Positions 35,246-54,481 of a stretch of DNA of 64,000 bases are shown here, piece after piece. How positions within the stretch are numbered: position 1 is the first letter of the stretch; every line of letters begins with the position of its first letter. The stretch comes from Actinomycetota bacterium (lineage in GTDB: Bacteria; Actinomycetota; Thermoleophilia; BMS3ABIN01). Below the pieces are notes generated by a model, which saw only the letters and a list, made by a program, of their open reading frames with translations, was not told the DNA's origin and made no database searches. The translations under genes were made by a program, and so were the position numbers. The stretch spans positions 62,001 through 126,000 of the forward strand of contig JACRMB010000007.1 in NCBI GenBank assembly GCA_016235065.1. Direction: 5' to 3'.

Positions 35246-35413
35246 ATTAGTGAACGCGAGATCCATAGTATCCATCACGATTTGAGTCGCCACAGGGCGA
35301 CGCATCACCCACCTTACATGGGGGCGACCTGGTTTCGACGGGGTCAATCTGGATGGGAGCAGCAAGCCGAGCTTCCGGTGGGCTCGTTAAACTACCGGAA
35401 AACTAACTCAAAC

Positions 35414-35443
35414 GCAGACGATAATCTCGCGTTAGCCGCTTAA
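35414..35443 (+). other. tmRNA proteolysis-tag coding segment
   Basis: GCA GAC GAT AAT CTC GCG TTA GCC GCT TAA reads ADDNLALAA and stop, ending in the canonical ALAA degron. The frame is open further upstream (KTNSN), so the exact resume codon is not fixed by inspection. Confidence 0.8.
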
Positions 35444-37158
35444 TTGCGGCTCGTCGTTCCCGCTAAGTCCACGAGCGGGGTAACGGCGTCAACAAGTGGA
35501 CTCAACCGCCGCGGTTGTCTCTCGCCGCGGTTGGGAAACCTTAGAGAGGCTGGCGGACCGGATCCTGCCTTCGCGGAGCCGGAACGTGAGAAACCAAAAG
35601 CGTAGGCTAAGCTTGTAGATACTCCCTTTTGGATGGCTTCGGACGCGGGTTCGATTCCCGCCGCCTCCACCAAACGCTTGTTACCCGAACTTTGCTCGAA
35701 CAGAGCGCCAAAAAGTTCGGTGTAATCTTTGTTGCTGATTTTCTTGTCTTTCACATAGATCTTTTCAAAAATGGCTTGGTTAAAGAGCCGTTTGTATTTG
35801 TCGCTGCATCCCTTGTAGGCGTCAGCGCAATAGGACGCCAGCTCAGCCGCCCGGGTCAGAATCCCGGTGTAATATTCCAGCTGGGTAGTAATCACTTTCA
35901 ATCTGCCCTCGGACACAGCCATTTCAGAAGCTATCCGGTCCTGCTCGATTTTGAGAACGTCCATGGGAACGGCACCAGCGTAATAGGCTTTCACGATTTT
36001 CAGCTTCTCCGCGTTTAGCCGCTGCATTTTCTTAAGGATGAACTGCTCTTCCATTGCCTGATGTTCCTGGCGTGAAATCAATTCTTCTCGGAAATCCTTG
36101 ACCAGTCTTTCGATGCTGTCTTTGGGAAGCTGAATCTCTTCGTAGAGTTCAACAATCTGTTTTTCAATATCTGAGGCCAGCACGTGCTTTGTATGAGTAC
36201 AGCCTCTACCCCTCTTAGTTCCCAGACAATAGAAGTAGTTGTATTTGCCTTTGGCCTTGGCGATGGAGAGCCGGGAACCGCATTCACCACAAAAGAGGGT
36301 TCCCTTGAGAAAGTGGGGATGCTTTCTCTTTCGCTCCCCGGCAGTGTTTCTCATATCGGTCACTTCTTGAACCTTGTCAAAAAGCTCCTTGTCGATGAGC
36401 GGTTCATGGTTGCCCTTCGCCTGAACGCCGCTCCACGTGACGGTTCCTATAAAGAATGGATTGGCCAGGACGCGGTTCACTGTGGAGGAAGTAAGAGGCT
36501 TATTCTCGTCCTTTTGGCTTCTGATTCCTTTGTCATAAAGGAAATCCCGAATATCGTCCACCGAATAATTGCCGGTCGAATAAAGTTCAAAGGCTTCTTT
36601 GACAAAAGGACCGGCGACAGGATCGATGATCACCTTGGCAATGCCTCTGCCACCTTCGCGGATGTTCTTGTAGCCGACAGGAGCCTGATGAGGCCAACCG
36701 CCCTGCTTCACTTTCTGTTCCATGCCTTTTTTGATTTCGGTGGCCAGATTAGCGGAGTAAAACTCGGCCATTAGTGCGTGTATGCCCTCCACGAACCTTC
36801 CCGAGGCGCTGTCCTCGATATTTTCAACCACAGATACCAGCTGGACGTTGGCGCGCTTGAGAATGGCTTTGATCGCCACATGGTCTTCCATATTCCGCGC
36901 CAGCCGGTCGATCTTGTGAACAACAATGGCGCTGACATCTTTTCCCTTTTTGATACGGGAAAGCATCAGCTGAAGGCTTGGGCGGTGAGCGCTCCTGGCG
37001 GATTCGCCCCTGTCGGCGTACTCATCAATAAACTTCCAGCCCTTTTCCTGAATGAGCTTCATACAGGCTTCACGCTGGGCAGCGATAGAGTAGCCTTCGC
37101 TCTCATTGGTCTGGGCCTGTTCCTTGGTTGATACTCTTAAATAAATGACACAGTTCAT
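35440..37158 (-). CDS. Large serine recombinase; C-terminus encoded antisense to ssrA
   Basis: Integrase of the island. Residues 1-145: resolvase catalytic domain (VIYLRVSTKEQ with the nucleophile Ser10, VVHKIDRLARN, and an R in DRGESARSAHRPSL). Then the recombinase DNA-binding domain (APVGYKNIREG to FFIGTVTWSG), a zinc ribbon CGECGSR...C...C and a long coiled coil (residues about 345-440). After GNKRLVEA the frame enters the ssrA 3' end and about 75 further codons are antisense tmRNA (AGIEPASEAIQKGVSTS onward), stopping opposite the tag codons. That tail is unlikely to be native. The start overlaps the XRE gene stop. Confidence 0.92.
   Translation of the reverse strand: MNCVIYLRVSTKEQAQTNESEGYSIAAQREACMKLIQEKGWKFIDEYADRGESARSAHRPSLQLMLSRIKKGKDVSAIVVHKIDRLARNMEDHVAIKAILKRANVQLVSVVENIEDSASGRFVEGIHALMAEFYSANLATEIKKGMEQKVKQGGWPHQAPVGYKNIREGGRGIAKVIIDPVAGPFVKEAFELYSTGNYSVDDIRDFLYDKGIRSQKDENKPLTSSTVNRVLANPFFIGTVTWSGVQAKGNHEPLIDKELFDKVQEVTDMRNTAGERKRKHPHFLKGTLFCGECGSRLSIAKAKGKYNYFYCLGTKRGRGCTHTKHVLASDIEKQIVELYEEIQLPKDSIERLVKDFREELISRQEHQAMEEQFILKKMQRLNAEKLKIVKAYYAGAVPMDVLKIEQDRIASEMAVSEGRLKVITTQLEYYTGILTRAAELASYCADAYKGCSDKYKRLFNQAIFEKIYVKDKKISNKDYTELFGALFEQSSGNKRLVEAAGIEPASEAIQKGVSTSLAYAFGFSRSGSAKAGSGPPASLRFPNRGERQPRRLSPLVDAVTPLVDLAGTTSRN
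35661..35672 (+). repeat. Left attachment core (12-bp direct repeat)
   Basis: CCGCCTCCACCA, the last 12 bases of tmRNA including CCA. Exact copy at 54470-54481 in the same orientation. Bases on either side of the two copies differ. Confidence 0.85.
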
Positions 37159-37685: not shown

Positions 37686-37706
37686 ATATCGAAGGATTAA
37701 CGATAT
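37686..37706. promoter_or_regulatory. Inverted-repeat operator, copy 2
   Basis: ATATCG - 9 bases - CGATAT, 65 bp from copy 1 centre to centre, overlapping the probable promoter of the rightward gene. Confidence 0.7.
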
Positions 37707-37729
37707 TTAATAGGTTCAGAGAGGCAAAA

Positions 37730-37915: not shown

Positions 37916-38017
37916 AATGCCTATTAATTACGTATTAAGACCCAAAACCTTGAAAAACATTAAAACCACCAGGGGGAAATTAACTGGATTTACAGGGCAT
38001 TTAGCCCACTTCAATCC

Positions 38018-38144
38018 AGCGCCGTCTGTCTTCGTTTACAGATCAAACGAAGCCCGACTTCCCGCCCCTCGACTTGCAGTTTCCCTCGTTTCTTCGTCTC
38101 GTCGGCGAGGCGCGGGAAGTCTGGCTTATCAGCCAGACGGCGCT
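38018..38144. repeat. Nested inverted-repeat element, possible origin or structured RNA
   Basis: Outer arms AGCGCCGTCTG (38018-38028) and CAGACGGCGCT (38134-38144) are perfect. Inside, CTTCGTTT/AAACGAAG (38030-38037, 38045-38052) forms a hairpin, and a 16-bp stem with one mismatch pairs 38056-38071 with 38106-38121. A further TCTGGCT/AGCCAGA hairpin competes with the outer arm. GC-rich in AT-rich surroundings, 48 bases before the replication-relaxation gene. Confidence 0.7.
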
Positions 38145-38191
38145 CCCTTCGGTCGCTTAATTTCTCCCTGGTTTAAAACGGAAAGACAAGA

Positions 38192-39031
38192 ATGAAAACA
38201 GCAAGAATAAACAACCGAATAACACCGATGTCGTTGACAGCTCGGGACGTGATGATAATCCTAAGTGTTTACGAGAATCGCTTCTTGAGGCGGGACCAGC
38301 TTCAGCGGCTTCACTTTTCAAGTGCATCACAGGTTGCCTGTTGTGTCCGGCTCAAGAAGCTTTACGAGAATCATTTTCTCGACAGGGTTGATCGACCGGC
38401 AACCTCAGTCAAATCCCAGGCCGTTTACGCCCTCGACAAGCGAGGGGCCGACGTGGTGGCGGTAACTCTTGAAATCAACCGCCATAAGATCAGATGGAGC
38501 CGCGCCGCGAACCGCGTGGAATGGCTCTTCATGGACCACACACTAGCTGTGTCTGAGTTCAAGGTATGCCTCGACGTGACGCTTGCCACTCGGAGAGAAG
38601 AGATATATTTCTATCAGCGAGGAGACAGGTCTCATCTGCGCCGGATTTCCGTGACGGGAGCCAAGAAGAGATATTTTGTTGTTGCACCTGACGCCTTCTT
38701 TGGAATCCAGAGCGGCAGAGGCAAGCACATCTTCTTTTTGGAGGTGGATATGGGAACGGAGACGCTATCGAGGTTTACTGAAAAGGTTGTTGCTTACAAG
38801 AGATATTGGAAATCCGGAAAATACGGAGAGGAATACGGATTCAATCACTTTCGCGTCATCACTATCTGTGAAAGCGAAAGACGCCTGGACAATTTACGCC
38901 AGGCGACGGGGAAAGCAGGAGGGCAAAGAATGTTTCTGTTTACGACTTTCCAAGCAATTCAGGAATACAGCACGCTTGGAAGCATCTGGCTTTCCCCGGT
39001 TTCAGATTTACCAACTTCTTTGTTGGAATAG
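38192..39031 (+). CDS. Replication-relaxation family protein
   Basis: 279 residues. Winged-helix N-terminus (LTARDVMIILSVYENRFLRRDQLQRLHF, VRLKKLYENHFLDRVDRP) followed by a nuclease-like core: DHTLAVSEFKVCLDV and an acidic HIFFLEVDMGTETLSRFTEKVVAYKRYW, the conserved end of the Replic_Relax family found on plasmids and integrative elements. The family is linked to plasmid replication or relaxation; biochemical detail is limited. It follows the nested inverted repeat, which may be its target. Confidence 0.8.
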   Translation: MKTARINNRITPMSLTARDVMIILSVYENRFLRRDQLQRLHFSSASQVACCVRLKKLYENHFLDRVDRPATSVKSQAVYALDKRGADVVAVTLEINRHKIRWSRAANRVEWLFMDHTLAVSEFKVCLDVTLATRREEIYFYQRGDRSHLRRISVTGAKKRYFVVAPDAFFGIQSGRGKHIFFLEVDMGTETLSRFTEKVVAYKRYWKSGKYGEEYGFNHFRVITICESERRLDNLRQATGKAGGQRMFLFTTFQAIQEYSTLGSIWLSPVSDLPTSLLE

Positions 39032-39427
39032 CCCGTTTAGGGCATGGCTTTCAGGGTCAGTCCCGGAAGGATGAAGCCCTTTTCCGCAAATCTGCCGCGC
39101 ACCTTCCTCCTTGGCAGGTTTTGCCCTTGCTGGCTGCGGAAGGTCCGGCTCAGGCTGCGAGCAAGCGTCCCCGAGCCGGGCTGAAGGCTCAAAGGTATGA
39201 ATTACCATTAATAAACTAGGAGTTTGACAAGAAGCTCATGTGTTGACAGATGTTCAGCTGAAGCTTTATAGTTTAATAACCGGTGGGGGAGGAAAAAATT
39301 ATGCCCTGGCGAAGTACACAACTAAGGTTGGTGCTGCCAGGAGCTTTTTGGTTCTAATCTTTGGCAAACGCAACCCTGGGCGATGCATCGAACGTTTGTC
39401 CATGCAAAGTTTGGAGCAGCGAGACAA
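39032..39427. other. Intergenic region with GC-rich hairpins and leader
   Basis: 396 bases without a convincing gene. The left half is GC-rich with complementary CCGGCTC/GAGCCGG arms around 39145-39180; the right half is AT-rich and holds a promoter for the P-loop/HD pair, leaving a leader of about 150 bases. Confidence 0.5.
39243..39272 (+). promoter_or_regulatory. Sigma-70 promoter of the P-loop/HD pair
   Basis: Perfect TTGACA and TATAGT separated by 18 bases. A second TTGACA-like hexamer lies upstream (GTTTGACAAG near 39221). The rightward gene pair begins about 150 bases downstream. Confidence 0.7.
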
Positions 39428-40372
39428 ATGAATACAATCGTATTCGCATCGGCCAAGGGACAGGTCGGCAAAAGTACACTTTGCCGACTTTACGCCGAGT
39501 ACTATGCTGTGGAAAAAAAACTCAAGACTCTAGTTATTGAGTCTAATTTTTTTACCTCCGGCAAGGAATATCCAATCTCTTGCGAACTTCCGAAGACAAT
39601 CGATGAATTTATTTTAAGTTCTGTCGCTGAGAATATTCCAGATTCTGAACTCCCCAGTTATATCAATAGCACTGAACTTGCTAACCTTTTTATACTACCC
39701 ACAAAAAGGATTTCAGATCAGGATATCTATTCTCCAGCAGATGAAGAAGCTAAAGATAACATTCGCAAACTTCTCGCTGTAGAAAGCACAACAAAGTTTA
39801 TTACTTCTTGTATTCAGCGGATAAATAAATATGCTCTCGAGGAGAAGTTTGACTTTTTTCTAATTGACACAACTTCAGATACCTCACCTAATTTAAATCT
39901 AACTTTAATTGATCGTGTTTTGACCTCTAGCTTCATTAATGGTCATGTTATGGCCATAGCTGAAACGAACTTTGAGGTCTTAAAAGAAACTATTATTTTT
40001 ATATATAAGAATGCTGGAAGAACGAAAACCTCAATCGAGCAACAAACTCTGATTACAAACAAAACTCCTACTGATGATCAAATCGATGAAGTTTGTCGGA
40101 TCGAAGAAGACGATCAATGTTTTGATAAACAGCTGAAAGAAGCTGCAGAAAAACAAAATGTCGTAAATTTTATCCTTAGTCAAGCAAACGTTCCCTTTGT
40201 TCTTAAAGACAATCAAGACGCTTTGAAGGGCTTAGAAGAGCTTTACATTCCTTTTGAAATTAGATTAAAGAGTTCCTCGCCACTGCCTCAGCCCAAAGAG
40301 CTATTGAAAAAATTGGAGGCTTTACAGCCCAACATTCAAGCGACTGCTGATCGCATTCTCGAACTCTGCTAG
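39428..40372 (+). CDS. ParA/MinD-like P-loop ATPase
   Basis: 314 residues starting at ATG with GGAG upstream. The N-terminus MNTIVFASAKGQVGKSTLC is a deviant Walker A of the ParA/MinD/CbiA class, with glutamine where KGGxGKS has glycine, and FDFFLIDTTSDTSPN is the Walker B segment. The C-terminal third is helical and polar (QIDEVCRIEEDDQCFDKQLK). No ParB-like gene or parS repeat is near; instead an HD phosphohydrolase gene follows 51 bases later. This suggests a regulatory or sensing switch in a two-gene unit rather than plasmid partition; partition cannot be excluded. Confidence 0.72.
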   Translation: MNTIVFASAKGQVGKSTLCRLYAEYYAVEKKLKTLVIESNFFTSGKEYPISCELPKTIDEFILSSVAENIPDSELPSYINSTELANLFILPTKRISDQDIYSPADEEAKDNIRKLLAVESTTKFITSCIQRINKYALEEKFDFFLIDTTSDTSPNLNLTLIDRVLTSSFINGHVMAIAETNFEVLKETIIFIYKNAGRTKTSIEQQTLITNKTPTDDQIDEVCRIEEDDQCFDKQLKEAAEKQNVVNFILSQANVPFVLKDNQDALKGLEELYIPFEIRLKSSSPLPQPKELLKKLEALQPNIQATADRILELC

Positions 40373-40423
40373 TCATTTTTTTCTCCGCCTTTTCTCCGCC
40401 AATCAACAGGAAATGAATTTTTG

Positions 40424-41818
40424 ATGCGAATGTTGCTAGACGACAAACGTTTTTTTAAAGATTATTTCAACTTCAGAGATGAACTGGAGCGAATTTCTGA
40501 GCTTAGAATCGATAGCTTGGGCGAGATAAATCGTACTCCAATATTTGAAGAAGATGTACCTTGGTCAGATAAGCACGATCAATATGCAGATGTAATGTAT
40601 TCAAAAAATAAGATGGACTGGCCAAGGTTGAAATTGCCGCACGAATCACTGCGTCGTTTCGCTCATGTCTATTTTGCACCTCTCGGTATTCGGGCATCAG
40701 TTGGTGATTACGTATTTTTTGAGTGGCTAATGGGCTTTAATCCATCTGCAGATAATATAAAACGAGAGCACTTTGGGCATGTGTCCAAAGTTGCTTGGTG
40801 TTGTTGGAAGCTGATTGAAATATTCAAGGAAGTGCAACCAGCTGATGATGTTTCTGTCCATGAAGTATTAATTTCATCAACAAGAAGAAAGTTCAAAGCA
40901 TTTCTCGATCATGTTGGGGTGCCTCTTAATGAAGATACCGATTTTGGAAGGATTTTGCTGGAATCTGTACTTTTAGCAGCCTATATGCATGATAAAGGAA
41001 TTATTCTAAATTTCTATGATGATCTTCGGGAGAAGGTTCTTCACGCGTTTAAACCGATGTGGGACCAAAGTTTGCTGTACTATGGTGGCACTGGCGAACG
41101 TGCAAGAAAAAAATATAGCTCTTTTTGCGATTGCGATAATGTTTATGACGGTAAAAATGATTGTTCCGTTGAGGATGTCATGGGCATGGAGCGAGTATGC
41201 AACTTTTTCGCGGCCGAGCGCGTATTAGGTAGGGATTATTGGCACGACATTTTTTGCAATTATGCTACCTCAAAATTTCCTAGGACAATCTATGACGAAG
41301 TAAAAAAGAACTATCACGGTGTTTATGCAGCTCTTGAGTTGCTTGCAATGCAGATTGGTTGCTTACAAAAAAATGCTGACCAATTTAGTGATTCCCTAGA
41401 GCGAGAATTCATCCTAGCTTTAGCTGCCGAGGCCGTTGCACTACATGATTTGAAGGTTGAAAAAAGAATAGACCTTGAAGAAAGCCCAACTGCTTTTCTT
41501 CTGTATTTGGCAGATGAGATTCAACAATGGCAACGGCACCAATTAGATATTAATAAGTTGCTCAATGAGCAAGTGCTTTATTGGGGGGATGGCGAGATTC
41601 AAAAAGTTTGCATAGAGACCGATGAAAATGATCTGTTCATTCAAATAACAAAGATCTCCAACGAAACAGATATTAGCAAAATTAAGAATGACATCTTAAA
41701 AGCAGAGCGGAAGATTCAGGAACGTTTAGACACCAAAGGACTGTTTACAATTCATTATTTTATTGATACATGTAATATATGTGACGTTGTTCCTGCGAGA
41801 GATTTAATTAAAGCTTGA
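40424..41818 (+). CDS. HD-domain phosphohydrolase-like protein
   Basis: 464 residues. HD-superfamily residues can be followed in order: REHFGHVSKVAWC (first His), LAAYMHDKGIIL (HD pair), KNYHGVYAALELLA, AAEAVALHDLKV, and SPTAFLLYLADEIQQWQR (terminal Asp), a block shared by HD proteins whose usual form is nPlaFLLxLxDelQxWxR. The N-terminal 90 and C-terminal 80 residues are not recognised. Substrate unknown; nucleotides are likely. Together with the P-loop ATPase it is a candidate defence pair. Confidence 0.68.
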   Translation: MRMLLDDKRFFKDYFNFRDELERISELRIDSLGEINRTPIFEEDVPWSDKHDQYADVMYSKNKMDWPRLKLPHESLRRFAHVYFAPLGIRASVGDYVFFEWLMGFNPSADNIKREHFGHVSKVAWCCWKLIEIFKEVQPADDVSVHEVLISSTRRKFKAFLDHVGVPLNEDTDFGRILLESVLLAAYMHDKGIILNFYDDLREKVLHAFKPMWDQSLLYYGGTGERARKKYSSFCDCDNVYDGKNDCSVEDVMGMERVCNFFAAERVLGRDYWHDIFCNYATSKFPRTIYDEVKKNYHGVYAALELLAMQIGCLQKNADQFSDSLEREFILALAAEAVALHDLKVEKRIDLEESPTAFLLYLADEIQQWQRHQLDINKLLNEQVLYWGDGEIQKVCIETDENDLFIQITKISNETDISKIKNDILKAERKIQERLDTKGLFTIHYFIDTCNICDVVPARDLIKA

Positions 41819-41840
41819 CGAACATATTACTTTATTGAAA

Positions 41841-41870
41841 AAAGGCGAATCTTAAAAATGATTCGCCTTT
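41841..41870. terminator. Bidirectional terminator between convergent genes
   Basis: An 11-bp stem AAAGGCGAATC/GATTCGCCTTT with a TTAAAAAT loop, flanked by A-rich and T-rich sides, sits between the rightward HD gene and the leftward small gene. Confidence 0.88.
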
Positions 41871-41875
41871 TTGCT

Positions 41876-42298
41876 TTAAAGCAGCACAGCCAGATTCATG
41901 TTCTCCACGTTCTCGTCTTCACGAGCCCGCATATTACTGAGGATCTCAATGGTTCTTATGAACTCCCCTGCAATGTGTTTTGCTAAACGTCCTGAGATTC
42001 CACCATATCCCCCCACTATTCTGAAGGGCCTGAAGTATACCATCCCGTTATGGATAACGGGAACCTGCCCCTCTCCTAGAAAGGTAGTGCCTGATGAATT
42101 TATTCTCAAACGTTCTTCTAGTTCTAATTCGAGATCCAGATTAGCCTCGAATTTGGGGAATGTCATGTGAAGGCCATACACCTCTAACGCAATACGCTTC
42201 GACTTTCCATCATCGATGTATTGAAAGAGCTTTTCGATAGAAGGAAAAATTATATTCCATGCCTTCTCGATCAGTTCTTGCCCTATCACATTTTGCAT
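41876..42298 (-). CDS. Hypothetical protein
   Basis: 140 residues, not recognised. The N-terminal helix (LIEKAWNIIFPSIEKLFQYI) is followed by beta-like segments (KRIALEVYGLHMTFPKFEAN, TTFLGEGQVPVIHNGMVYF), a glycine-rich turn GGYGGISGRLAKHI and a helix. No cysteines, no membrane segment. It is last on the leftward strand, 191 bases after the UPF0489-like gene, and may or may not belong to that operon. Confidence 0.6.
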   Translation of the reverse strand: MQNVIGQELIEKAWNIIFPSIEKLFQYIDDGKSKRIALEVYGLHMTFPKFEANLDLELELEERLRINSSGTTFLGEGQVPVIHNGMVYFRPFRIVGGYGGISGRLAKHIAGEFIRTIEILSNMRAREDENVENMNLAVLL

Positions 42299-42489
42299 GA
42301 TGCGCTCCTTTTACTCACTTTCCAGGACTGGAACTGCCCATGAGCCTGCTCAGGCAGAACCCAGCCCTAGAAAAGCTAAGGAGCTCAATAATAGATATAT
42401 CACAAATAATAAAAATTGTATACAGTTTTGGTCTACAGTATTTCTTGAGAAAGCAGCATTTGTTGAAACTGAGAGTTTAGAAAATGCTT

Positions 42490-43254
42490 TTAGAATTCTT
42501 CGATGTAGCTTCTTATCAAATCAACGAGGGCATCAGAAGTCGCAGGTGTATATTCTGGCGAAAGGCTCAGGATAACCAAATCAAACGGTTTCTCGGCCTG
42601 ATATTCAGCAACAGAAACCATTTCAAAAGGTATCTCGGGCTCGCATTCTATAATATCCTCATATTCGAGGTCATTCACATCTTTATTATTTTCAAAGCCA
42701 CGTTCACAACGTTTTAGTTCGATGATTCCTGAGTTTCGAGAGAAATCTTTGAAATGTAAATGGATAAGGTCATTTCCACCGCGTTCATGATGTACATAAG
42801 TTAGACGTGATATCCATTGACATGCTATTGCAAATGCAAGGTAGTTCCCAGGTAAAATTCCGTAAGAATTGCCGCGTTTCGGGTCGCTACGTTCAATTAC
42901 CGGTTTGTGCAACAGCTCTCCCATGATATAAACGTAAGCAGCATCTCCCAAACCCATATCTGCATGGGCATCTGCGTGAACGACTTCAAAAGGATTTCGG
43001 ATTCTCCCAGCTGTAATCTCCTCACGCCAATAATAAAAAGCCTCATCATGATGAGTAATAATTTTTCCTGGAGCCCTATTAACAGTGGAAAGCAAGCACT
43101 GCTGTTCCAAGAATAGTATTAGCCTTTCCTTAGGCCAAGGCCGATATTCCTCTTCATCTAGGCGAGAATCACCTTGCTGCCAGTGGGCTATATCCGAAAG
43201 GAAAAGATCAAGGTCGAGATCGAGAATGCGTTGTTGTGACAAGATCTTTGTCAA
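42490..43254 (-). CDS. UPF0489-like arginase-fold protein
   Basis: 254 residues from TTG directly after the protease stop, with only two bases between. ILDLDLDLFLSD and FEVVHADAHADMGLGD are the metal-binding blocks of the UPF0489 family, whose fold resembles arginase/deacetylase, with LVILSLSPEYTP as the last strand. The reaction is unknown; ureohydrolase-like or deacetylase-like chemistry is possible. Its fixed position behind an ImmA/IrrE protease and an HD enzyme is unusual. Confidence 0.72.
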   Translation of the reverse strand: MTKILSQQRILDLDLDLFLSDIAHWQQGDSRLDEEEYRPWPKERLILFLEQQCLLSTVNRAPGKIITHHDEAFYYWREEITAGRIRNPFEVVHADAHADMGLGDAAYVYIMGELLHKPVIERSDPKRGNSYGILPGNYLAFAIACQWISRLTYVHHERGGNDLIHLHFKDFSRNSGIIELKRCERGFENNKDVNDLEYEDIIECEPEIPFEMVSVAEYQAEKPFDLVILSLSPEYTPATSDALVDLIRSYIEEF

Positions 43255-43255
43255 T

Positions 43256-44047
43256 TTAAATGAACAGCTTTAGACTGCTCATTGAAACAATAAGGAATAC
43301 GACATCGTTCGATTGCTCATCTATGTCTAAAAATTGCACGTTTTCGAATTGATCCTTATCTCTTTTGCTGAGATACTCCTGAGCTAATTCCCGAAGCTTA
43401 CTCCTATCATCCTTCGACAGTGATGGGGAAGCAGCCGCGCCTTGTTTGATTAAGCGCCAATTATTATCTTCGCTCCTCATCCAACGACCCGCAATACCAG
43501 TTACCAACTCATAATCGGCTAGCATAATTCTTGCAGCCCAAGAACGGTTGATATTAAGATAAACATGTAGCTTTCGAAAAATAGTTTCGAGATTAGTTTC
43601 ACCAATAATTTCTAGAAACTCTAGGTGCTGTCTTGGTGCTAATAAATGTCGTGCAACGTCAAAACAAAAATGTTCTTCTCTTGTTTGATGAGTAATTAAT
43701 CTGCGGGGCTTGCTTTCAAGGGGACTTGTGTAGAATAACGTATGCGCTAACTCGTGAGCCACAGATGCTCTAAATCTTCGGGCTGGAAGGTCGGCATTGA
43801 CGCGAATTTGGAAGCCGTAATTTGTCGGCAACAACATCGCCCCACTTTCCATACCTGAAAAAGTCTCGATTTTTGAATTCAGGACTCGTGCAAGGCGATA
43901 GACTTCAACTGGTACGATGCGGCGATAGCTTGGGTGATTCATGTAGCCTTCAAGTAAAAAATTGGAGGCTTCCTTCACGGCCTGCTGCCAGACTTCCCCT
44001 TCTGCAGATAGCCACTCTTGGACTAAGTTGACGCTGGTTTCACTCAT
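43256..44047 (-). CDS. ImmA/IrrE-family metallopeptidase
   Basis: 263 residues. The zinc site HELAHTLFY lies in RASVAHELAHTLFYTSPL, with a downstream glutamate in REEHFCFDVARHLLAP as third ligand, the arrangement of ImmA/IrrE gluzincins, which cleave repressors in response to stress. The ATG overlaps the end of the upstream HD gene by eight bases (ATGAGTGA), so they are translated together. Its target may be an operon partner or a host repressor (inference). Confidence 0.85.
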   Translation of the reverse strand: MSETSVNLVQEWLSAEGEVWQQAVKEASNFLLEGYMNHPSYRRIVPVEVYRLARVLNSKIETFSGMESGAMLLPTNYGFQIRVNADLPARRFRASVAHELAHTLFYTSPLESKPRRLITHQTREEHFCFDVARHLLAPRQHLEFLEIIGETNLETIFRKLHVYLNINRSWAARIMLADYELVTGIAGRWMRSEDNNWRLIKQGAAASPSLSKDDRSKLRELAQEYLSKRDKDQFENVQFLDIDEQSNDVVFLIVSMSSLKLFI

Positions 44048-45731
44048 TTTCCTCAGATTGCTCTTCTGCTTTAGTGCCATCTAATTCGAGTTGATCTTTT
44101 GAATTTTTTACTTTTGACTTTTTCACAGGACTACTCTTTTCAGAAGCAGCCTCGCTAATAGCTTCATCAATTAACGACTCGTCAAATGACCCTCCTTCCA
44201 ACGCAGCATCTTCCTCTGTCATTTCTGTAACTCGACGAGAGACATCAGGAGCATATCTTGTTCTCCAGGCACCATTCACTTTTTCATAAATCTCAGCTGC
44301 TTCTTTAAAACGAGGATTTTGTTTCGCGTAAGTTTCGATAAACACCGGATCACAATCTATTCCTAGCTCCCTCGCTAATGCGTCGATGACTGCTGGTGCC
44401 TTTTCCATCTGTTCCGGATTAATCCCAATCCAAAATGTCCAGAGATCCAAGTATTGGTTTTCTATGGTTTCAACGCGATCATATACTCTTCGAAACTGAT
44501 CACGGACTTCCTGGCTCCGAAGTACGACAGGCTTATGCCATCCGCCGGACTGTTGCCAGATGACATTTGCTTTTACAAGCTTCATTCCTGACTTTCCTTC
44601 GGGACACCAGAGAACAAGTGAGCCACGTTGTAAATCGAGCCTATCTTCGATTTTGACGAGTAGTTCTTCTATTGCTTCTGAATTGCGCCATTTCACATCG
44701 AATTTGTCATCATCTGACTGGCTGTTCCTTCGATTCCAACTCTCCATGTCTTGCCGTTGAATCTTGAAAATACGCTTATATAGATTTCGTGACCGTAAAC
44801 GGTCAAGCAACATTTTGGCACCATCTCCTGTAGGCTTGTCAGGGGAATTCGCTGCCAGGCTTTCGAGGTATAGGAGAAAGGCTTCATCTCCCATATCCAA
44901 CAGTTTGGGTTCATCTTCTAAATTTGCAAGCCTTGCTGCGCGGGCTAACATTGCGCTTGCGATTGCCTTGGCGTGATGGTAAATGACGCGTTCAGTCAGA
45001 GCATACCTCATGTCAAGTAAGTCCATTATTGCCGAAACTATATCTGTACGAAGGCCGCCCTTTGTTAATTTTATGCATAGCCTTTCGTTGGTTCCTTCCG
45101 TCCCATCATCATCCCTAACCGTTTTTTCTGCCCTGGTGAAATAGTCATAGATGCGGTAATAGCCCGGTCGCTTCTCGATGCCAGTCCATGCGGCGTCGGT
45201 GGTGATGTAAGCGAGGAGATCAGCGCAAACGGTATTGCCGACAAGATCGCTCTTCCAATCCCGAACGGAGTCATTTGACGAGGAAATAGCGTGAAGTATT
45301 GGTGCCGCTCTATCAATGAGGGCTTGTGCATCATCGCCCACCTCACCCTTGAGTTTTTCAAGAACGTTTGAGACGCGCTCGCCCTTGTCGTGCTTTGGTA
45401 AAACTTCATTCTCGTCTTCCAGTGTGTGGCTAAAAGGAACGTGTCCCATATCATGCAAAAGGGCCGCCATTCTTACATCCGACCAGTCATTGCTACCTGC
45501 TTCAACCCCAATAGCATCGAGAAGCCTGGAAGCTTCGTCAAGACATTCAATACTGTGTCCTGCTCTCGTGTGGGTTGCACTAGGATAAACTAAATGAGCT
45601 AATCCAAGTTGTTTCAAATAAAACAGACGCTGAAAGACTCTGGTTCTTGTAATTTCAGCCTCAAGCTCTGTGAGCTTTACATCGCGGTTGGGTATGCGGA
45701 ATCTTTTATTTTTTTCGTCGAAGTCGCTCAA
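44040..45731 (-). CDS. HD-domain dNTPase-like phosphohydrolase
   Basis: 563 residues resembling dGTPase/SAMHD1-type enzymes. FQRLFYLKQLGLAHLVYPSATHTRAGHS leads into the first His, and MAALLHDMGHVPFSHTLED is the HD motif with the usual PFSH; NDSVRDWKSDLVGN and LAYITTDAAWTG complete the core (the last Asp). The C-terminal tail is acidic and lysine-rich (KSSPVKKSKVKNSKDQ) and probably disordered. Predicted to hydrolyse dNTPs or another nucleotide. It leads an operon with the protease and the UPF0489-like gene. Confidence 0.84.
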   Translation of the reverse strand: MSDFDEKNKRFRIPNRDVKLTELEAEITRTRVFQRLFYLKQLGLAHLVYPSATHTRAGHSIECLDEASRLLDAIGVEAGSNDWSDVRMAALLHDMGHVPFSHTLEDENEVLPKHDKGERVSNVLEKLKGEVGDDAQALIDRAAPILHAISSSNDSVRDWKSDLVGNTVCADLLAYITTDAAWTGIEKRPGYYRIYDYFTRAEKTVRDDDGTEGTNERLCIKLTKGGLRTDIVSAIMDLLDMRYALTERVIYHHAKAIASAMLARAARLANLEDEPKLLDMGDEAFLLYLESLAANSPDKPTGDGAKMLLDRLRSRNLYKRIFKIQRQDMESWNRRNSQSDDDKFDVKWRNSEAIEELLVKIEDRLDLQRGSLVLWCPEGKSGMKLVKANVIWQQSGGWHKPVVLRSQEVRDQFRRVYDRVETIENQYLDLWTFWIGINPEQMEKAPAVIDALARELGIDCDPVFIETYAKQNPRFKEAAEIYEKVNGAWRTRYAPDVSRRVTEMTEEDAALEGGSFDESLIDEAISEAASEKSSPVKKSKVKNSKDQLELDGTKAEEQSEENE

Positions 45732-45838
45732 GATTTTCCCACCCAGCTCGGTTTTTTTTGGGGAAACAATTATAGTCTATGGTGACTAAAAAAGAACCCT
45801 TTTCTTCAAAAGGCACATAAATAGATGTATCTTGAAAG

Positions 45839-45875
45839 AAAAAAGCGGAAAATTCGCGAGAACGCTCCGCTTTTT
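45839..45875 (-). terminator. Rho-independent terminator
   Basis: Arms AAAAAAGCGGA and TCCGCTTTTT around a 16-base loop. Located 29 bases after the stop of the leftward gene ending at 45904, and upstream of the HD operon, which it isolates. Confidence 0.8.
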
Positions 45876-45903
45876 CATATTGCTATATCACATTTACGTT
45901 GCT

Positions 45904-46485
45904 TCAGAGGCTTTCATTGAGTTGCAGCACCCATTCTGATCGGTTTGCAGCGCTCTCAACCTCTTTCTTATACTCAGCGGCGTGAAACAGGATCTCCTGT
46001 CGCACCAGCTCAATCTGCTTTTCCCTGAAAGCTGCTCCGCTTAAGGGTTTATCCGGAATAGCCTTGAGATTGCAATCGGCGTCGATGCTCTTTCCAAGCT
46101 TTGAAAGCATGAAATCCTTCAGGCTCCTATGACCTTGACTTGGCGGTTCCCATGCGCTCGCCTTGGAAAACATCGCTTCATATCGAATCTTCACTTTCTT
46201 CACCCTATCGTTATGCAACCGCGCTTCCTCGACCTCTCTTTCAAATTCGTCAACTGCCATTATTGATGCAGTCTCATCATCCCAGGCGTCGATTGTGGAG
46301 AGACGATCCATCGCATCTCGTAGCTTTTCGAGCTGCTCATTGCTGGGCTCGAATTTTTCTGGAATGGGCTCATTCTCCTCCAGCACACCGAGGAATATGC
46401 CTGAATTACGTGCGCACTGAATCGCAAAATGTGAAAAACTCACCTCTTTTCCATCGTAAATGTTTTTTGTGTACTCGTTTGGCAT
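45904..46485 (-). CDS. Hypothetical protein, phage-like
   Basis: 193 residues, mostly helical and charged, not recognised. EKLRDAMDRLSTIDAWDDET and EFEREVEEARLHNDRVKKVK suggest coiled coil; the C-terminus (AAFREKQIELVRQEILFHAA) is also helical. Similar charged helical proteins occur in phages and islands. ATG is preceded by AAGGAG. Divergent from dcm, with 194 bases between that hold both promoters. Confidence 0.6.
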   Translation of the reverse strand: MPNEYTKNIYDGKEVSFSHFAIQCARNSGIFLGVLEENEPIPEKFEPSNEQLEKLRDAMDRLSTIDAWDDETASIMAVDEFEREVEEARLHNDRVKKVKIRYEAMFSKASAWEPPSQGHRSLKDFMLSKLGKSIDADCNLKAIPDKPLSGAAFREKQIELVRQEILFHAAEYKKEVESAANRSEWVLQLNESL

Positions 46486-46679
46486 AGTAACTCCTTTGAA
46501 TTCAAGTAGCCAAAATCGTCATTTTGAATATAACAAAGTTATGATAATTTATCAACTATTATGTGAGTAGAAAATCCTCAATTCTAGGGAAAAATATCGG
46601 TTTCTAATTAGGGGGCGGGATTTCAGCCGTCCGTATTGAATTCTAAACTGAATAGAATAGAATCAGGTTTGCATTTGGC

Positions 46680-47936
46680 GTGGAGCAAAATCGTGTTTAT
46701 CATCGACCGTTTAGGAACTTTTTATTGCCGACTGAATTACTAAAAAAACCTTTTTCCACTAGCCAGGAGCCTAAGAGAGCCTCTAGGCAACACGTTTTCT
46801 ATGAGTTCTTTGCTGGCGGCGGGATGGCCAGGGCAGGCTTGGGCCGTCAGTGGAAGTGCGTTTTTGCGAACGAGATCGATAAGAAGAAGGCTGAAACATA
46901 CCGGGCAAATTGGGGAGCTCAGGATTTAAGTGTGCAGGATGTTAATCTCGTTACGCTGGATGATCTACAGGGTGAGGCAGATCTTTCTTGGGCGTCATTT
47001 CCGTGTCAGGACCTTTCATTGGCAGGTAATGGGATGGGTTTATGCGCTCAACGTAGCGGCACCTTTTGGCCCTTTTGGAAGCTAATGCGCGGGCTCGTCA
47101 AAGAGGGTCGAGGGCCAAGGCTAATAATTCTCGAAAACGTCTATGGCGCGCTCACGAGTCATAATGGACGTGATTTTGCTGAAATCGGTTCCGCATTGTC
47201 CGGTTCAGATTATTCTTTCGGCGCGGTAGTGATTGATGCAGTTCACTTCGTTCCCCAAAGTCGGCCAAGGCTATTTGTAATAGGGGTCAGAAAAGATTTA
47301 AGAATTCCTGACGAATTAAAGGCGGGATCTGCGGGCTTGCTTTGGCATCCAAAAGCCATCCTGGCCGCACATCGTAATCTTTCAAAGACCGCAGCGAAGA
47401 AGTGGGTATGGTGGGATATTCCAGCCCCATCAACTCGATCGATCTCTTTACCAGCGCTCATTGAGACAGAGCCAACCGGAACCACTTGGCACACTGCCAA
47501 AGAAACGGCTTACTTGCTGAAGCTCATGTCACCAACCAATAAGAAAAAAGTTGAATCGGCCAAAGCATCCGGCAAGCGGATGATTGGAACGGTTTATAGG
47601 AGGACAAGGAATGGTCAGCAACGAGCCGAGGTCAGATTTGACGAAATTTCAGGGTGTTTGCGAACACCAATCGGAGGGTCTAGCAGACAAACTATCTTAG
47701 TCGTTGAAAAGGGCAAGGTCAGGTCCCGGCTTCTTTCGACAAGAGAAGCGGCGCGTCTCATGGGCCTTAAGGACACTTATAAGATTCCTGACAACTATAA
47801 TGCTGCTTATCATCTTGCCGGTGATGGTGTTGTTGTTCCTGTCGTGGGGCACATAAGCAAACACGTTCTCGAACCCATTCTTGAAGCGAATTCCACAACC
47901 GCTAGGGAAAGCTCGGCTATTTCACCTCGTGCCTGA
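46680..47936 (+). CDS. DNA (cytosine-5)-methyltransferase
   Basis: 418 residues starting at GTG. Motif I FYEFFAGGGMARAGLGRQW, motif IV SWASFPCQDLSLAG with the catalytic cysteine in PCQ, motif VI ILENVYGAL (ENV), motif VIII FVPQSRPRLFVIGVR (QxRxR), and a C-terminal motif IX-X around RLLSTREAARLMGLKD. A complete m5C enzyme, the modification half of a restriction-modification system with the overlapping downstream gene; sequence specificity unknown. Confidence 0.94.
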   Translation: MEQNRVYHRPFRNFLLPTELLKKPFSTSQEPKRASRQHVFYEFFAGGGMARAGLGRQWKCVFANEIDKKKAETYRANWGAQDLSVQDVNLVTLDDLQGEADLSWASFPCQDLSLAGNGMGLCAQRSGTFWPFWKLMRGLVKEGRGPRLIILENVYGALTSHNGRDFAEIGSALSGSDYSFGAVVIDAVHFVPQSRPRLFVIGVRKDLRIPDELKAGSAGLLWHPKAILAAHRNLSKTAAKKWVWWDIPAPSTRSISLPALIETEPTGTTWHTAKETAYLLKLMSPTNKKKVESAKASGKRMIGTVYRRTRNGQQRAEVRFDEISGCLRTPIGGSSRQTILVVEKGKVRSRLLSTREAARLMGLKDTYKIPDNYNAAYHLAGDGVVVPVVGHISKHVLEPILEANSTTARESSAISPRA

Positions 47937-48867
47937 TGCATTATTAAAAGCCCTGAAGGAGTTTCTCGAAGATAACCCTACTTTTGGGATGAAGGGGCCG
48001 CTATGCGTCGCATTGGTTGTTACTGACCAGGCTCAAAAATATGGATTACCTCTTGAGCCGGACAATTTACTCACGGGAAGGGGAGGTCAGGTTGCTGGGC
48101 TGAGCGGTGGAGCCGTCCAAACAATACTTAATAGACATGGGATTGACAGACCCCTTGCTAAAGAAGGAGGCAGAACAAGTCGCGGAAGCATCGATAATAT
48201 GAGGCTTTTTGTGGATTTTCTCAATCATTTGGAAGCTGAAGGATTGGTGGACTTCGAGGTTATAGAATCCTTCTGGATCAACCAGACCAAGGAGTTCTTT
48301 GCAAGCAAACCCTTCAAACTAAAACTTGATGCCTCCCGCAGCATCGTTTTCATAGTGCGAGATTTGCTGGACCAAACAAGAGCACGGGAAAAAGAAATGC
48401 CCGGCGTTCATTATGCAGGCGCGGTCATTCAACATCTTGTTGGAGCCAAGTTAGATTGTGTACTTGGTACTGGAAACATTGAGCATCACAGTTTCTCAAC
48501 TTCTGACCAGCAAACAGGCAGGCACGGTGATTTCTTTACTGGTGACGTCGCGGTACATGTAACCACTGCACCAAACGAAGCTGTAATTGACAGATGTCAG
48601 ACAAATCTAAATGAAGGCCATCGCCCGATCTTGATCACCCTTGAAGATAAGGTTGAGTATTCAAAGATTACAGCAGATCAGCGAGGGTTAGGTGAGCGGA
48701 TCGATGTATTCGGGATCGAACAGTTCGTGGCAGCCAACATTTATGAATTAGGTGGCTTTGCAGGTGAGGGTAGGAAAACGACCATCGCCGATCTGATCAA
48801 GCGTTACAACGAAATTATTGAATCAGCAGAAACTGACCACAGTATGAAGATTGCCTTCCAGGGCTGA
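47929..48867 (+). CDS. DUF4928 family protein, probable restriction endonuclease
   Basis: 312 residues from GTG 47929, which overlaps the methyltransferase stop; TTG 47881 is an alternative. Typical DUF4928 segments: LVVTDQAQKYGLPLEPDNLL, GRGGQVAGLSGGAVQTIL and, in the C-terminal half, HYAGAVIQHLVGAKLDCVLG with GDFFTGDVAVHVTTAP. This family stands next to m5C methyltransferases, so it is probably the cognate restriction enzyme. No PD-(D/E)XK is obvious, though the late acidic/lysine stretch ILITLEDKVEYSKI could serve. Confidence 0.8.
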   Translation: MPDALLKALKEFLEDNPTFGMKGPLCVALVVTDQAQKYGLPLEPDNLLTGRGGQVAGLSGGAVQTILNRHGIDRPLAKEGGRTSRGSIDNMRLFVDFLNHLEAEGLVDFEVIESFWINQTKEFFASKPFKLKLDASRSIVFIVRDLLDQTRAREKEMPGVHYAGAVIQHLVGAKLDCVLGTGNIEHHSFSTSDQQTGRHGDFFTGDVAVHVTTAPNEAVIDRCQTNLNEGHRPILITLEDKVEYSKITADQRGLGERIDVFGIEQFVAANIYELGGFAGEGRKTTIADLIKRYNEIIESAETDHSMKIAFQG

Positions 48868-49294
48868 TAAATCTGCAGCTGCCAAGCGCAGTGAGATAAT
48901 GCGGGCCGTTCATTCTGAGGACACTGGTCCTGAAATGATAGTCCGTAAGCTAGTACACTCTCTCGGTTTTAGGTATCGCCTTCACGTATCGACTCTCCCC
49001 GGGAAACCAGACCTAGTTTTTCCGTCCAGAAGGAAAGTTATATTTGTCCACGGATGCTTCTGGCATGGCGACAGTTGTAAGCGAGGCAAACGAGTTCCCA
49101 AAGGAAATCGCGACTATTGGGTTAAGAAAATCAGTCGGAACGTTGAGCGGGATAAGAAGAACCAGAAATTATTAAATGAGCTTGGCTGGGACTATTTGAT
49201 TATCTGGGAGCATGAATTGAAAGATTTGGCGCTCGCAGAAAACCGAATTGTTAGTTTTCTAGACCCAACAAGATATAAGTCAAATGGAAAATAA
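48851..49294 (+). CDS. vsr: Very short patch repair endonuclease Vsr
   Basis: 147 residues, TTG start overlapping the preceding gene. Nicks next to T in T:G mismatches formed when 5-methylcytosine deaminates. Motifs: RSEIMRAVHSEDTGPEMIVR, FRYRLHVSTLPGKPDLVFPS with the catalytic aspartate, VIFVHGCFWHGDSC with zinc ligands, and DYWVKKISRNVERDKKN. Placed after an m5C methyltransferase, it protects the host from methylation-induced mutation. Confidence 0.95.
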   Translation: MPSRADKSAAAKRSEIMRAVHSEDTGPEMIVRKLVHSLGFRYRLHVSTLPGKPDLVFPSRRKVIFVHGCFWHGDSCKRGKRVPKGNRDYWVKKISRNVERDKKNQKLLNELGWDYLIIWEHELKDLALAENRIVSFLDPTRYKSNGK

Positions 49295-50090
49295 CCGCTC
49301 GAAATCTGTACCGGCGTTAACATCCGGTCAGCTAGAAGCGCTTTGTAAAACTTTAGCTGATACTTTTTCTGGTCTAACAGGCTCAGAAATCGGTCATATT
49401 CTGAATCAAATTCGGGTCGCTGATATATCGCCGATAATGACCAAATGGAAACGCCTTTATAACGCTTTAGTAGAGCGTCAGAATCGGGATCAAAGTGGAG
49501 ATCGTGTCTTTGCCTTCATTGCTCGGGCAATGGAGCCAGCTCGTTATGCAGGTCAAATTGATTTCTTTGAACAAAGAGTACAAGAAATTAATGTCACATT
49601 GTCATATCTCGGATATGAGTTTCATGAGGATGGCAAGTTCCATCGTTGCAAGCAAGCAAAAACGTTATCCGAAGCCGAGGAAAGAGCTAACCGAATGCGA
49701 TCCCTACTTATTAAACGTAATATTCATCCTGACGTTATCAAATTTTGTCGAGCCGAACTCATGAAAAATAATTGTTTTCATGCCGTTCTCGAAGCTTGTA
49801 AAAGCGTAACCGCAAAGATCAGAGATCGCACCGGACTGACCAGCGATGGAGCTCAACTAATACAGGAAGCATTTGGAGGTAATAGCCCGCTTCTCAGGGT
49901 AAACTCCTTTTCTTCAGAAAGTGAGAAAGGAGAACAAAGAGGTTTTATGAATCTTGCCATCGGCTTATTCGGGACGTTTCGTAATCCGACTGCTCATGAG
50001 GCAAGAATTCGCTGGCCTCTCAACGAAGAAGATGCATTAGATCTCTTTGCCTTAGCTTCTTATGTGCATCGCAGAATTGAACGAATTTAG
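49284..50090 (+). CDS. TIGR02391/Ymh family protein
   Basis: 268 residues overlapping vsr by eleven bases. The C-terminal half carries the Ymh signature: FHAVLEACKSVTAKIRDRTG, GLFGTFRNPTAHEARIRW and EDALDLFALASYVHRRIERI. The R-N-P-T-A-H pattern is HEPN-like, suggesting RNA binding or cleavage. Ymh proteins are common inside restriction-modification and defence clusters, but their activity is not settled. Confidence 0.82.
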   Translation: MENNRSKSVPALTSGQLEALCKTLADTFSGLTGSEIGHILNQIRVADISPIMTKWKRLYNALVERQNRDQSGDRVFAFIARAMEPARYAGQIDFFEQRVQEINVTLSYLGYEFHEDGKFHRCKQAKTLSEAEERANRMRSLLIKRNIHPDVIKFCRAELMKNNCFHAVLEACKSVTAKIRDRTGLTSDGAQLIQEAFGGNSPLLRVNSFSSESEKGEQRGFMNLAIGLFGTFRNPTAHEARIRWPLNEEDALDLFALASYVHRRIERI

Positions 50091-50175
50091 TAGAGCTAAA
50101 GATTCCTATGACTTGACTGCGCGAGCGATTGGTCATGTAATAAGCGGTATTATTCAACTTCTGGGCGGGCAATAA

Positions 50176-51777
50176 ATGTCTTCTCCAGTAAAAAACAAGC
50201 TTTCCATTTATCTGATCAAAAGCGAATACCAAGACGCTGAAGTGATTGTTGATGATATTGACAATCTGGAGAAGCTGGAGATCAGCGAGGGTTTAACGCT
50301 CTATTATGGCGACTCCCATACCTATCGGCCAGGCTGGGTCGGGAAATTTTTTAGAGACAGTGTTCCTGATGAAGCTGCCATCTTCAATGCCTCTTCTAAA
50401 GCGCTTCTAATGGTAGAAGTCGATATCGCCGGTAAAAAGAGAATCTTTTGCATTTCGTTCGGTCAGGGTCGGCACATCATGCAATCGGGTGCATGGGAGG
50501 AAAGTTTTGGGCTTAAAGTGACCTTGAATGCCATTGATCCGAATAATCTGCGGAGCATCGAGAAGACGAATATGTCATCAGTTCCAAAGCATGCAAGCGA
50601 ACAGATAAGCCGGGATGGCGCAGCCGCCGATTTTGGAATTGATATTGAGCAAGATCTTGTCAGGGCGGTAACCGGAAAATCAAAAGAGGAACTATTTGGG
50701 CTGACGATCACGGGAAAAGACAGCTTACAATCCTCGGTAAAAATAGATATATCAAATGTCAAAGAATTTCTGATCGCTTGTTTCAACAAATCTCAGAGCG
50801 ATGATTATAAGAAAGATTTTGGATGGATAGACCAGATTTCGGAAATCAAAGATCCGCACCTGGTTGATGAGTTAAATGGCGAGCTGGTAAATAGAATCCG
50901 GGCAATTGAGCTTGAAAAGACTTGGATTGCTGTGCCGCAAATCATCGAGTGGGAAGATGTTGCGGGATTCAAATATCGAAATAGTATTCGAGACCAGAAT
51001 GAGGATGACATTAGCCTACCGGCATTCCTCGAATCTTTAACGGCAACGGCAAGGGAAGATGTTTCTCTAGAGCTGTTGAAAAGCAGGAAGGTATATTGCT
51101 TTAGTGCAAGCACAGACCAACTGCTCCATAGGTGGCCCATCTATAACTGCATTTATTCTGAAATCAGCATAAGCGGGAAAACATATTTGCTTAACAATGG
51201 TAAGTGGTATCAAATCAATGACGATTTCGCAGCCAAAGTAAATTCAGACTTCGAGGTATTGAGAGACGCGGGATCTACCCTTTCCTTCCCAGATTGTGGC
51301 AATGAAAGGGAAGATGTATACAACCAAAGAGTGGCAGCTGAAAATGGCATGCGCTGTTTGGATAGTGATAACGTCATTTATGGTGGGGGCTACAGCAGAA
51401 TCGAATTTTGCGATCTTCTGACAAGAGACAAGCAAATCGTACATGTTAAGAAGTATGGAGGTTCATCCGTACTTAGCCATTTGTTTTCACAAGCAGTAGT
51501 TTCCGGCGAAGCATTTCTAAGCGCCGAGGAATTTCGAGAGAAACTAAATGAGAAGCTGGAGGGGGCATATAAACTGGACGACCCGTCTACGAAACCTGAC
51601 CCAGCAGATTATGAAATAATTTTCGGAGTAATAAGCAAATCTACCGCGGCGCTAGAGCTACCTTTCTTTAGCAAAGTCACATTGCGAAATGCGAAGATAA
51701 GATTGGAAGCGTTCGGCTTCAAGAGGATTTCGTTGGCAAAAATTCAACATATCGAAGGTGAGGCTGACATCGAATAA
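50176..51777 (+). CDS. TIGR04141/DUF6119 family sporadically distributed protein
   Basis: 533 residues, ATG start. The N-terminus (KLSIYLIKSEYQDAEVIVDD, then GWVGKFFRD, AIFNASSKALLMVEVDIAGK, ISFGQGRHIM) matches this family, which appears patchily in defence and mobile contexts. The middle contains DLVRAVTGKSKEELFGLTIT and the C-terminus IHVKKYGGSSVLSHLFSQAV-like nuclease-like segments (VHVKKYGGS with acidic residues upstream YSRIEFCDLL), which could be a PD-(D/E)XK-related core. Function unknown. Confidence 0.8.
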   Translation: MSSPVKNKLSIYLIKSEYQDAEVIVDDIDNLEKLEISEGLTLYYGDSHTYRPGWVGKFFRDSVPDEAAIFNASSKALLMVEVDIAGKKRIFCISFGQGRHIMQSGAWEESFGLKVTLNAIDPNNLRSIEKTNMSSVPKHASEQISRDGAAADFGIDIEQDLVRAVTGKSKEELFGLTITGKDSLQSSVKIDISNVKEFLIACFNKSQSDDYKKDFGWIDQISEIKDPHLVDELNGELVNRIRAIELEKTWIAVPQIIEWEDVAGFKYRNSIRDQNEDDISLPAFLESLTATAREDVSLELLKSRKVYCFSASTDQLLHRWPIYNCIYSEISISGKTYLLNNGKWYQINDDFAAKVNSDFEVLRDAGSTLSFPDCGNEREDVYNQRVAAENGMRCLDSDNVIYGGGYSRIEFCDLLTRDKQIVHVKKYGGSSVLSHLFSQAVVSGEAFLSAEEFREKLNEKLEGAYKLDDPSTKPDPADYEIIFGVISKSTAALELPFFSKVTLRNAKIRLEAFGFKRISLAKIQHIEGEADIE

Positions 51778-54395: not shown

Positions 54396-54481
54396 TTAAG
54401 CGGAAACCTGCTTCATTACTCGCTCCAGACGACTTAATATATTGACCTCAGAGTTCGAATAACGTTGCACCGCCTCCACCA
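54396..54481 (-). pseudogene. Displaced 3' end of the serine recombinase reading frame
   Basis: Read leftward through the repeat, the frame that continues the recombinase after GNKRLVEA gives VQRYSNSEVNILSRLERVMKQ-like residues and then a TAA stop at 54396-54398. The helix SEVNILSRLERVMKQ looks like genuine protein. In the excised circle this would restore a native recombinase C-terminus. Confidence 0.6.
54470..54481 (+). repeat. Right attachment core (12-bp direct repeat)
   Basis: Exact copy of the ssrA terminus CCGCCTCCACCA at the point where AT-rich island DNA changes back to chromosomal DNA. Confidence 0.85.

What the first reader, a model, noticed from the sequence alone, without database searches (positions are those of the whole stretch)
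42490..45731. Operon of dNTPase-like HD enzyme, ImmA/IrrE protease and UPF0489 arginase-fold protein
The genes overlap or nearly touch (8-base overlap, then two bases), so they act together. dGTPase-like HD enzymes can defend by depleting nucleotides, and ImmA/IrrE proteases cleave repressors in response to damage; the UPF0489 protein has no known defence role. A protease-triggered nucleotide-depleting module with a third, metal-dependent component would be new.
Basis: partly seen in the sequence, partly recalled or inferred. Interest (0 to 1): 0.7.

Follow-up and report, generated by a model that had tools for sequence, protein, structure and literature searches.

The report
Mobile dNTPase–protease pair with passenger enzyme
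A mobile DNA element carries an enzyme related to the human antiviral protein SAMHD1 whose gene overlaps that of a protease, a pairing that recurs in three unrelated genomes or phages and so probably forms one regulated unit that destroys DNA building blocks, while the third gene beside it seems to be a separate, unusual arginase-like enzyme.

Summary
The three genes are real and form one tight minus-strand transcription unit: HD protein 44040–45731, ImmA/IrrE-type protease 43256–44047 (8-base overlap), UPF0489 protein 42490–43254 (1-base gap). They are cargo of an ~18.8-kb serine-recombinase element inserted in ssrA, beside a restriction-modification cassette. Searches split the trio. The HD–protease pair recurs with overlapping genes in three unrelated loci (one same-phylum genome with gene order swapped, one viral contig, one genome of another phylum sample), always without UPF0489, and no Xre repressor was found among the neighbours tested. 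The HD protein aligns best with eukaryotic SAMHD1 dNTPases and keeps their catalytic residues; the protease keeps HExxH and the distal Glu. UPF0489 relatives (44 genome loci, plus plasmids and phages) never have this HD or protease beside them, so UPF0489 is most likely a passenger. It is itself odd: all six metal ligands of the peptide arginase OspR are present, but the DxD motif sits at the N-terminus, out of the usual order. Best explanation: a self-contained, protease-regulated SAMHD1-type dNTPase module of mobile elements. Catalysis, direction of regulation and any anti-phage effect are inferred. New variant of a known kind.

The parts
44040..45731 (-). SAMHD1-type HD dNTPase-like protein (563 aa); first gene of the unit
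   Evidence: PF01966/PF19276; profile hits fungal 9mr6 and mammalian SAMHD1 structures at 1e-32 to 1e-22; H59, H93-D94, H97, H102, D171, Y175, D179 align with SAMHD1 H167, H206-D207, H210, H215, D311, Y315, D319 (SAMHD1 numbering from own knowledge)
43256..44047 (-). ImmA/IrrE (M78)-type metalloprotease, 263 aa from the ATG at 44047 (274 aa if from the in-frame ATG at 44080)
   Evidence: HExxH at H98-E99-H102 and E125 conserved in all four pair members; capP in PADLOC; IrrE 3dte and CapP 7t5t by profile
42490..43254 (-). UPF0489/peptide-arginase-like protein with the DxD ligand motif at its N-terminus; probable passenger
   Evidence: PF12640 25.9 bits; OspR 8brp by profile and by fold, Z 10.1; 40-member alignment with D14, D16, H69, D95, H97, D99 invariant
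35320..35672 (+). ssrA (tmRNA) gene, integration target of the element
   Evidence: ARAGORN
35661..35672 (+). attL-like 12-bp repeat CCGCCTCCACCA at the 3' end of ssrA
   Evidence: only two exact copies in the window
54470..54481 (+). attR-like 12-bp repeat CCGCCTCCACCA, right end of the element
   Evidence: G+C shifts from 39-48% inside to 55-60% outside
35440..37158 (-). large serine recombinase of the element
   Evidence: PF00239, PF07508, PF13408
37155..37565 (-). Xre-type regulator of the element (possible substrate of the protease in a rival reading)
   Evidence: capH 38 bits, RmrA N-terminal part
46680..49294 (+). restriction-modification cassette next to the unit: C5-cytosine methylase, DUF4928 REase_II, Vsr

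Best explanation
The functional core is a two-gene module: a SAMHD1-type HD dNTPase and its dedicated ImmA/IrrE protease, mostly carried as cargo on mobile elements. Shown: the two genes overlap here and in three unrelated loci, in both gene orders, without an Xre repressor found among the neighbours tested in the other three; residues needed for both enzyme activities are retained (one HD histidine is Gln in one member). Inferred: the HD protein hydrolyses dNTPs and blocks replication when active; the protease sets its activity by cleaving the HD protein (or a third factor) when ssDNA or another infection or damage signal appears, as PprI/IrrE and CapP do for their repressors; depletion of dNTPs then stops phage or competing-element replication. 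UPF0489 is co-transcribed here but is not a required part; it is probably an independent ureohydrolase acting on arginine in a peptide or protein.
For: Pair recurrence: L072 (protease 8506-9144 overlaps HD 6867-8537 by 32 bases, order swapped), L106 viral contig (HD 4926-7061, protease 7030-8106, overlap 32 bases), L173 (HD then protease 2241-3269, overlap 14 bases). All four proteases hit capP and all four HD proteins hit dGTPase in PADLOC. Background: about one M78 gene per genome in 100 genomes of the phylum, so the chance of an adjacent one is of order 1e-3 per gene; 3 of about 29 other members of the HD clade have one. Catalytic residues kept. Three of four pairs lie on or beside mobile DNA: ssrA element, phage contig with terminase and NrS-1-like polymerase, beside an integrase. 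Precedents: HD dNTPase effector held in check by an accessory gene (Clover, PMC12265719); ssDNA-activated M78 proteases PprI and CapP (PMC10904395).
Against: No activity, toxicity or defence shown. Only four pairs found; the paired HD proteins do not form one supported clade (3 changes). Some 25 relatives of about 440 aa have no protease beside them, so the HD family as a whole does not need it. The L173 HD gene is broken by a frame change at an A7 run and has Gln for the H210 equivalent. The AlphaFold model of the HD protein failed (pLDDT 36), so its fold and domain limits rest on sequence.
Confidence: 0.5

Rival explanations
1. The protease is the mobile element's own ImmA: it cleaves the Xre regulator at 37155-37565 to release recombinase expression, and the HD gene is simply co-transcribed.
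For: The element carries an Xre regulator with a capH-like profile directly upstream of the recombinase; ImmR-ImmA pairs control integrative elements (established knowledge).
Against: ImmA-type proteases normally sit beside their repressor; here it is 5.7 kb away. The three other HD-protease pairs had no Xre protein among the neighbours tested by Pfam, though not every small ORF was tested.
Confidence: 0.2
2. All three proteins work together, with UPF0489 as a third effector or modifier (for example Arg-to-Orn conversion in the HD protein or protease).
For: Tight spacing (1 base). Relatives of UPF0489 also lie behind other defence-type genes: an Old-family ATPase with a 14-base overlap (L020), CBASS cyclase and NucC (L051), a ThsB-like TIR protein (L043).
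Against: No second trio in about 49 UPF0489 loci or in the three other pairs. Many UPF0489 relatives sit beside housekeeping genes.
Confidence: 0.15
3. Toxin-antitoxin logic: the HD protein is a toxin and the protease-like protein neutralises it by binding, with catalysis secondary.
For: Overlapping two-gene layout on mobile DNA; HD dNTPase CloA is toxic without its partner (PMC12265719).
Against: Active-site residues of the protease are kept in all four members, which plain binding would not require.
Confidence: 0.15

Closest known systems
Clover (CloA dNTPase + CloB nucleotidyltransferase), PMC12265719
   Same: HD dNTPase-type protein paired in an operon with an accessory regulator
   Different: Partner here is an M78 protease, not a nucleotidyltransferase; the HD protein is of the SAMHD1 type by profile, whereas CloA is described alongside the bacterial dGTPase SpdGTPase
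SAMHD1 and bacterial SAMHD1-like HD proteins (PF01966 + PF19276; 2o6i, 2hek)
   Same: HD core and catalytic residues; best PDB matches are SAMHD1 proteins
   Different: No SAM domain found; overlapping protease gene; long C-terminal extension (556-704 aa)
CapH-CapP and PprI/IrrE-DdrO
   Same: M78 metalloprotease; capP is the best PADLOC profile for all four pair proteases
   Different: No Xre repressor gene directly beside the protease; its neighbour is an enzyme
Peptide arginases OspR/FlmR (UPF0489, PF12640)
   Same: All six metal ligands present; best fold match OspR 8brp, Z 10.1, rmsd 4.0, 168 residues
   Different: DxD motif at the N-terminus instead of about 120 residues after DxHxD; no RiPP gene cluster seen

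Membership tests
SAMHD1-type dNTPase | HD-domain family match | tested here: met
   PF01966 39.3 bits, PF19276 32.7 bits, above cut-offs; SAMHD1 structures E 1e-32 to 1e-22
SAMHD1-type dNTPase | Metal and substrate residues H167, H206, D207, H210, H215, D311, Y315, D319 | tested here: met
   All present in window, L072, L106; one Gln for H210 in L173
SAMHD1-type dNTPase | dNTP triphosphohydrolase activity | not testable with these tools
   needs biochemistry
ImmA/IrrE (Peptidase_M78) | Pfam score above gathering cut-off | tested here: inconclusive
   window 19.2 bits vs 22; relatives 30.6, 45.8 and 35.3 bits
ImmA/IrrE (Peptidase_M78) | HExxH plus distal Glu | tested here: met
CapH-CapP regulated system | Xre/CapH gene directly beside the protease | tested here: not met
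   neighbours are HD and UPF0489; nearest Xre found is 37155-37565
Clover | CloB nucleotidyltransferase partner | tested here: not met
   no nucleotidyltransferase match among neighbours in Pfam/PADLOC scans
UPF0489 / peptide arginase | PF12640 above cut-off | tested here: not met
   25.9 bits vs 27, only profile positions 3-85 of 167
UPF0489 / peptide arginase | Six metal ligands (OspR H12, D39, H41, D43, D165, D167) | tested here: met
   H69, D95, H97, D99, D14, D16 invariant in 40 sequences
UPF0489 / peptide arginase | Motif order H - DxHxD - DxD | tested here: not met
   DxD comes first; profile 3-15 matches OspR 161-173 and profile 54-151 matches OspR 3-94; fold alignment 60-254 to 3-295

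The most novel reading that the evidence does not exclude
A new two-gene, protease-switched SAMHD1-type immune module of mobile elements, to which an arginase-like enzyme with a relocated catalytic strand is added as an interchangeable accessory that also sits behind Old-family, CBASS-NucC and TIR-type genes elsewhere.
Probability: 0.2. Interest if true: 0.8.

Novelty: new variant of a known kind. Interest (0 to 1): 0.5.

Why it matters
Nucleotide depletion by HD dNTPases is an antiviral strategy shared by animals and bacteria. A bacterial SAMHD1-type enzyme tied to its own damage-type protease would be a control principle different from the nucleotide signals known for Clover, and it is directly testable with two genes. 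The arginase-like neighbour would add a ureohydrolase family with a rearranged strand order.

Tried and rejected
Trio as a conserved unit: rejected as a general statement. ImmA–UPF0489 link: one UPF0489 locus (L033) has Xre + CapP (1.6e-61) upstream, but about 300 bases and what reads by eye as the start of a broken Vsr-like frame lie between, so it is taken as island neighbourhood. HD relatives in plasmids and phages (Klebsiella, Roseibium, Rhizobium, Desulfosarcina, Sphingobium, Natrinema, Thermomicrobium): none of those inspected had an annotated M78 protease beside them. The G424 HD relative is only a fragment. Long HD proteins in G576 and G589 had no protease neighbour. Four M78 hits in the phylum had no HD or UPF0489 relative nearby. 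HD structure prediction failed for lack of sequences, so no fold search was made with it. Single-sequence scans of IMG/VR found nothing. Papers describing an HD–ImmA/IrrE pair: none found in the searches made; the library is partial and DefenseFinder models could not be tested.

Full report
What is there. On the minus strand of the window three genes run in the order HD protein (44040–45731), ImmA/IrrE-type protease (43256–44047) and UPF0489 protein (42490–43254), with an 8-base overlap and a 1-base gap. A hairpin with a T run (read by eye at about 45880–45838; the terminator scan did not list it) separates the HD gene from the upstream gene at 45904, and about 190 bases separate UPF0489 from the next gene. 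One transcription unit of three genes is therefore likely (inference).

Where it sits. The unit is inside a low-G+C block (39–48% against 55–60% in most of the flanks) that begins at the tmRNA gene ssrA (35320–35672). A serine recombinase (35440–37158) follows, and the 12-bp end of ssrA, CCGCCTCCACCA, recurs once, at 54470–54481. A same-genus genome has a related recombinase end (84% over 1000 bases) at the same site, and others have different DNA there. This is an integrative element of about 18.8 kb. Its other cargo includes a C5-methylase/DUF4928 restriction enzyme/Vsr cassette and a PD-Lambda-3_B-like protein.

HD protein. It matches PF01966 and PF19276 above cut-off. A three-member profile finds the fungal SAMHD1 9mr6 (identified through PMC12042053) and mammalian SAMHD1 among the best solved structures. 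Residues aligned with SAMHD1 H167, H206, D207, H210, H215, D311, Y315 and D319 are all present (SAMHD1 numbering is from own knowledge, the alignment is).

Protease. Its Pfam M78 score is marginal on its own. Relatives paired with an HD gene score well above the cut-off, profile search finds IrrE and CapP structures, and HExxH plus the distal Glu are conserved.

The pair recurs. L072 (a genome of the same phylum) has the protease before the HD gene with a 32-base overlap. L106 (IMG/VR contig with terminase and an NrS-1-like polymerase) has HD then protease, overlapping by 32 bases. L173 (from the sample of the phylum of a Pirellulales genome) has HD then protease, overlapping by 14 bases, between an aldehyde-dehydrogenase-family gene and a phenylalanyl-tRNA synthetase gene; its HD reading frame changes at an A7 run, which may be a sequencing error or a real frameshift. 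These loci were found by the HD sequence alone, without selection for a protease. About 25 relatives of about 440 aa in the Planctomycetota and Bacillota samples have no protease beside them. M78 genes occur at about one per genome in the phylum, so an adjacent one is expected in about one HD gene in a thousand; even a tenfold enrichment on mobile DNA leaves three in about 29 unexpected. In a tree the four paired HD proteins lie in one supported clade with the unpaired 440-aa group but do not form a clade of their own, so pairing may have arisen, or been lost, more than once.

UPF0489 is not part of that core. Its relatives were found in 44 genome loci, four plasmids, five Streptococcus phage records and one viral contig. 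None has the window's HD or protease nearby. Neighbours range from housekeeping genes to defence genes (Old-family ATPase with overlap in L020, CBASS cyclase and NucC in L051, ThsB-like TIR in L043). It behaves as a mobile accessory gene. Its own anatomy is of interest: the six ligands of the OspR binuclear manganese site (PMC10028609) correspond to D14, D16, H69, D95, H97 and D99, invariant in 40 sequences, but the DxD motif lies first instead of last. The AlphaFold model is confident (pLDDT 94.9) and aligns residues 60–254 in sequence to OspR 3–295, leaving the N-terminal strand unaligned. That fits a strand moved to the N-terminus rather than a simple circular permutation; since coordinates could not be inspected, the completed metal site is an inference.

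How it may work. The best reading is a self-contained module in which an M78 protease sets the activity of a SAMHD1-type dNTPase. M78 proteases PprI and CapP are activated by ssDNA (PMC10904395), and the HD dNTPase CloA needs a partner to keep it from being toxic (PMC12265719). Both are precedents, not evidence for this pair. The main rival is that the protease serves the element's own Xre regulator. Clover membership and CapH–CapP membership fail on their defining partner genes.

Verdict. Observation confirmed; interpretation partly supported; the novel element is the HD–protease pair rather than the trio. The PADLOC 2.0.0 scans gave only weak single-gene dGTPase and capP matches for the four pairs, and the paper searches made found no description of such a pair; neither proves that it is unknown.

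Noticed in passing
window 35320-54481: Integrative element at ssrA with a serine recombinase and 12-bp att-like repeats; different DNA follows ssrA in same-genus genomes, so ssrA looks like an integration hot spot.
   Followed up: partly
window 49284-50090: PD-Lambda-3_B-like protein (PADLOC 296 bits, Hypoth_Ymh) directly behind the Vsr gene.
   Followed up: no
window 50176-51777: TIGR04141/DUF6119 'sporadically distributed' protein next to the defence genes.
   Followed up: no
L100 368-2258 and L176 263-2082: SAMHD1-like HD genes followed closely by genes that look (by eye) like DUF4065/Panacea antitoxins, suggesting another partner type for HD enzymes.
   Followed up: no
L105 2026-5102: Protein kinase-like domain fused to an HD dNTPase-like domain, followed by what looks by eye like a TIR/ThsB-like protein.
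   Followed up: no
L012 5914-8381, L040, L047, L054: In rhizobia UPF0489 forms a recurrent, nearly overlapping pair with a ~550-aa probable membrane protein, opposite a Schlafen/AlbA_2 gene in several loci.
   Followed up: partly
L173 1530-1560: HD frame changes at an A7 run; sequencing error or frameshift not decided.
   Followed up: no
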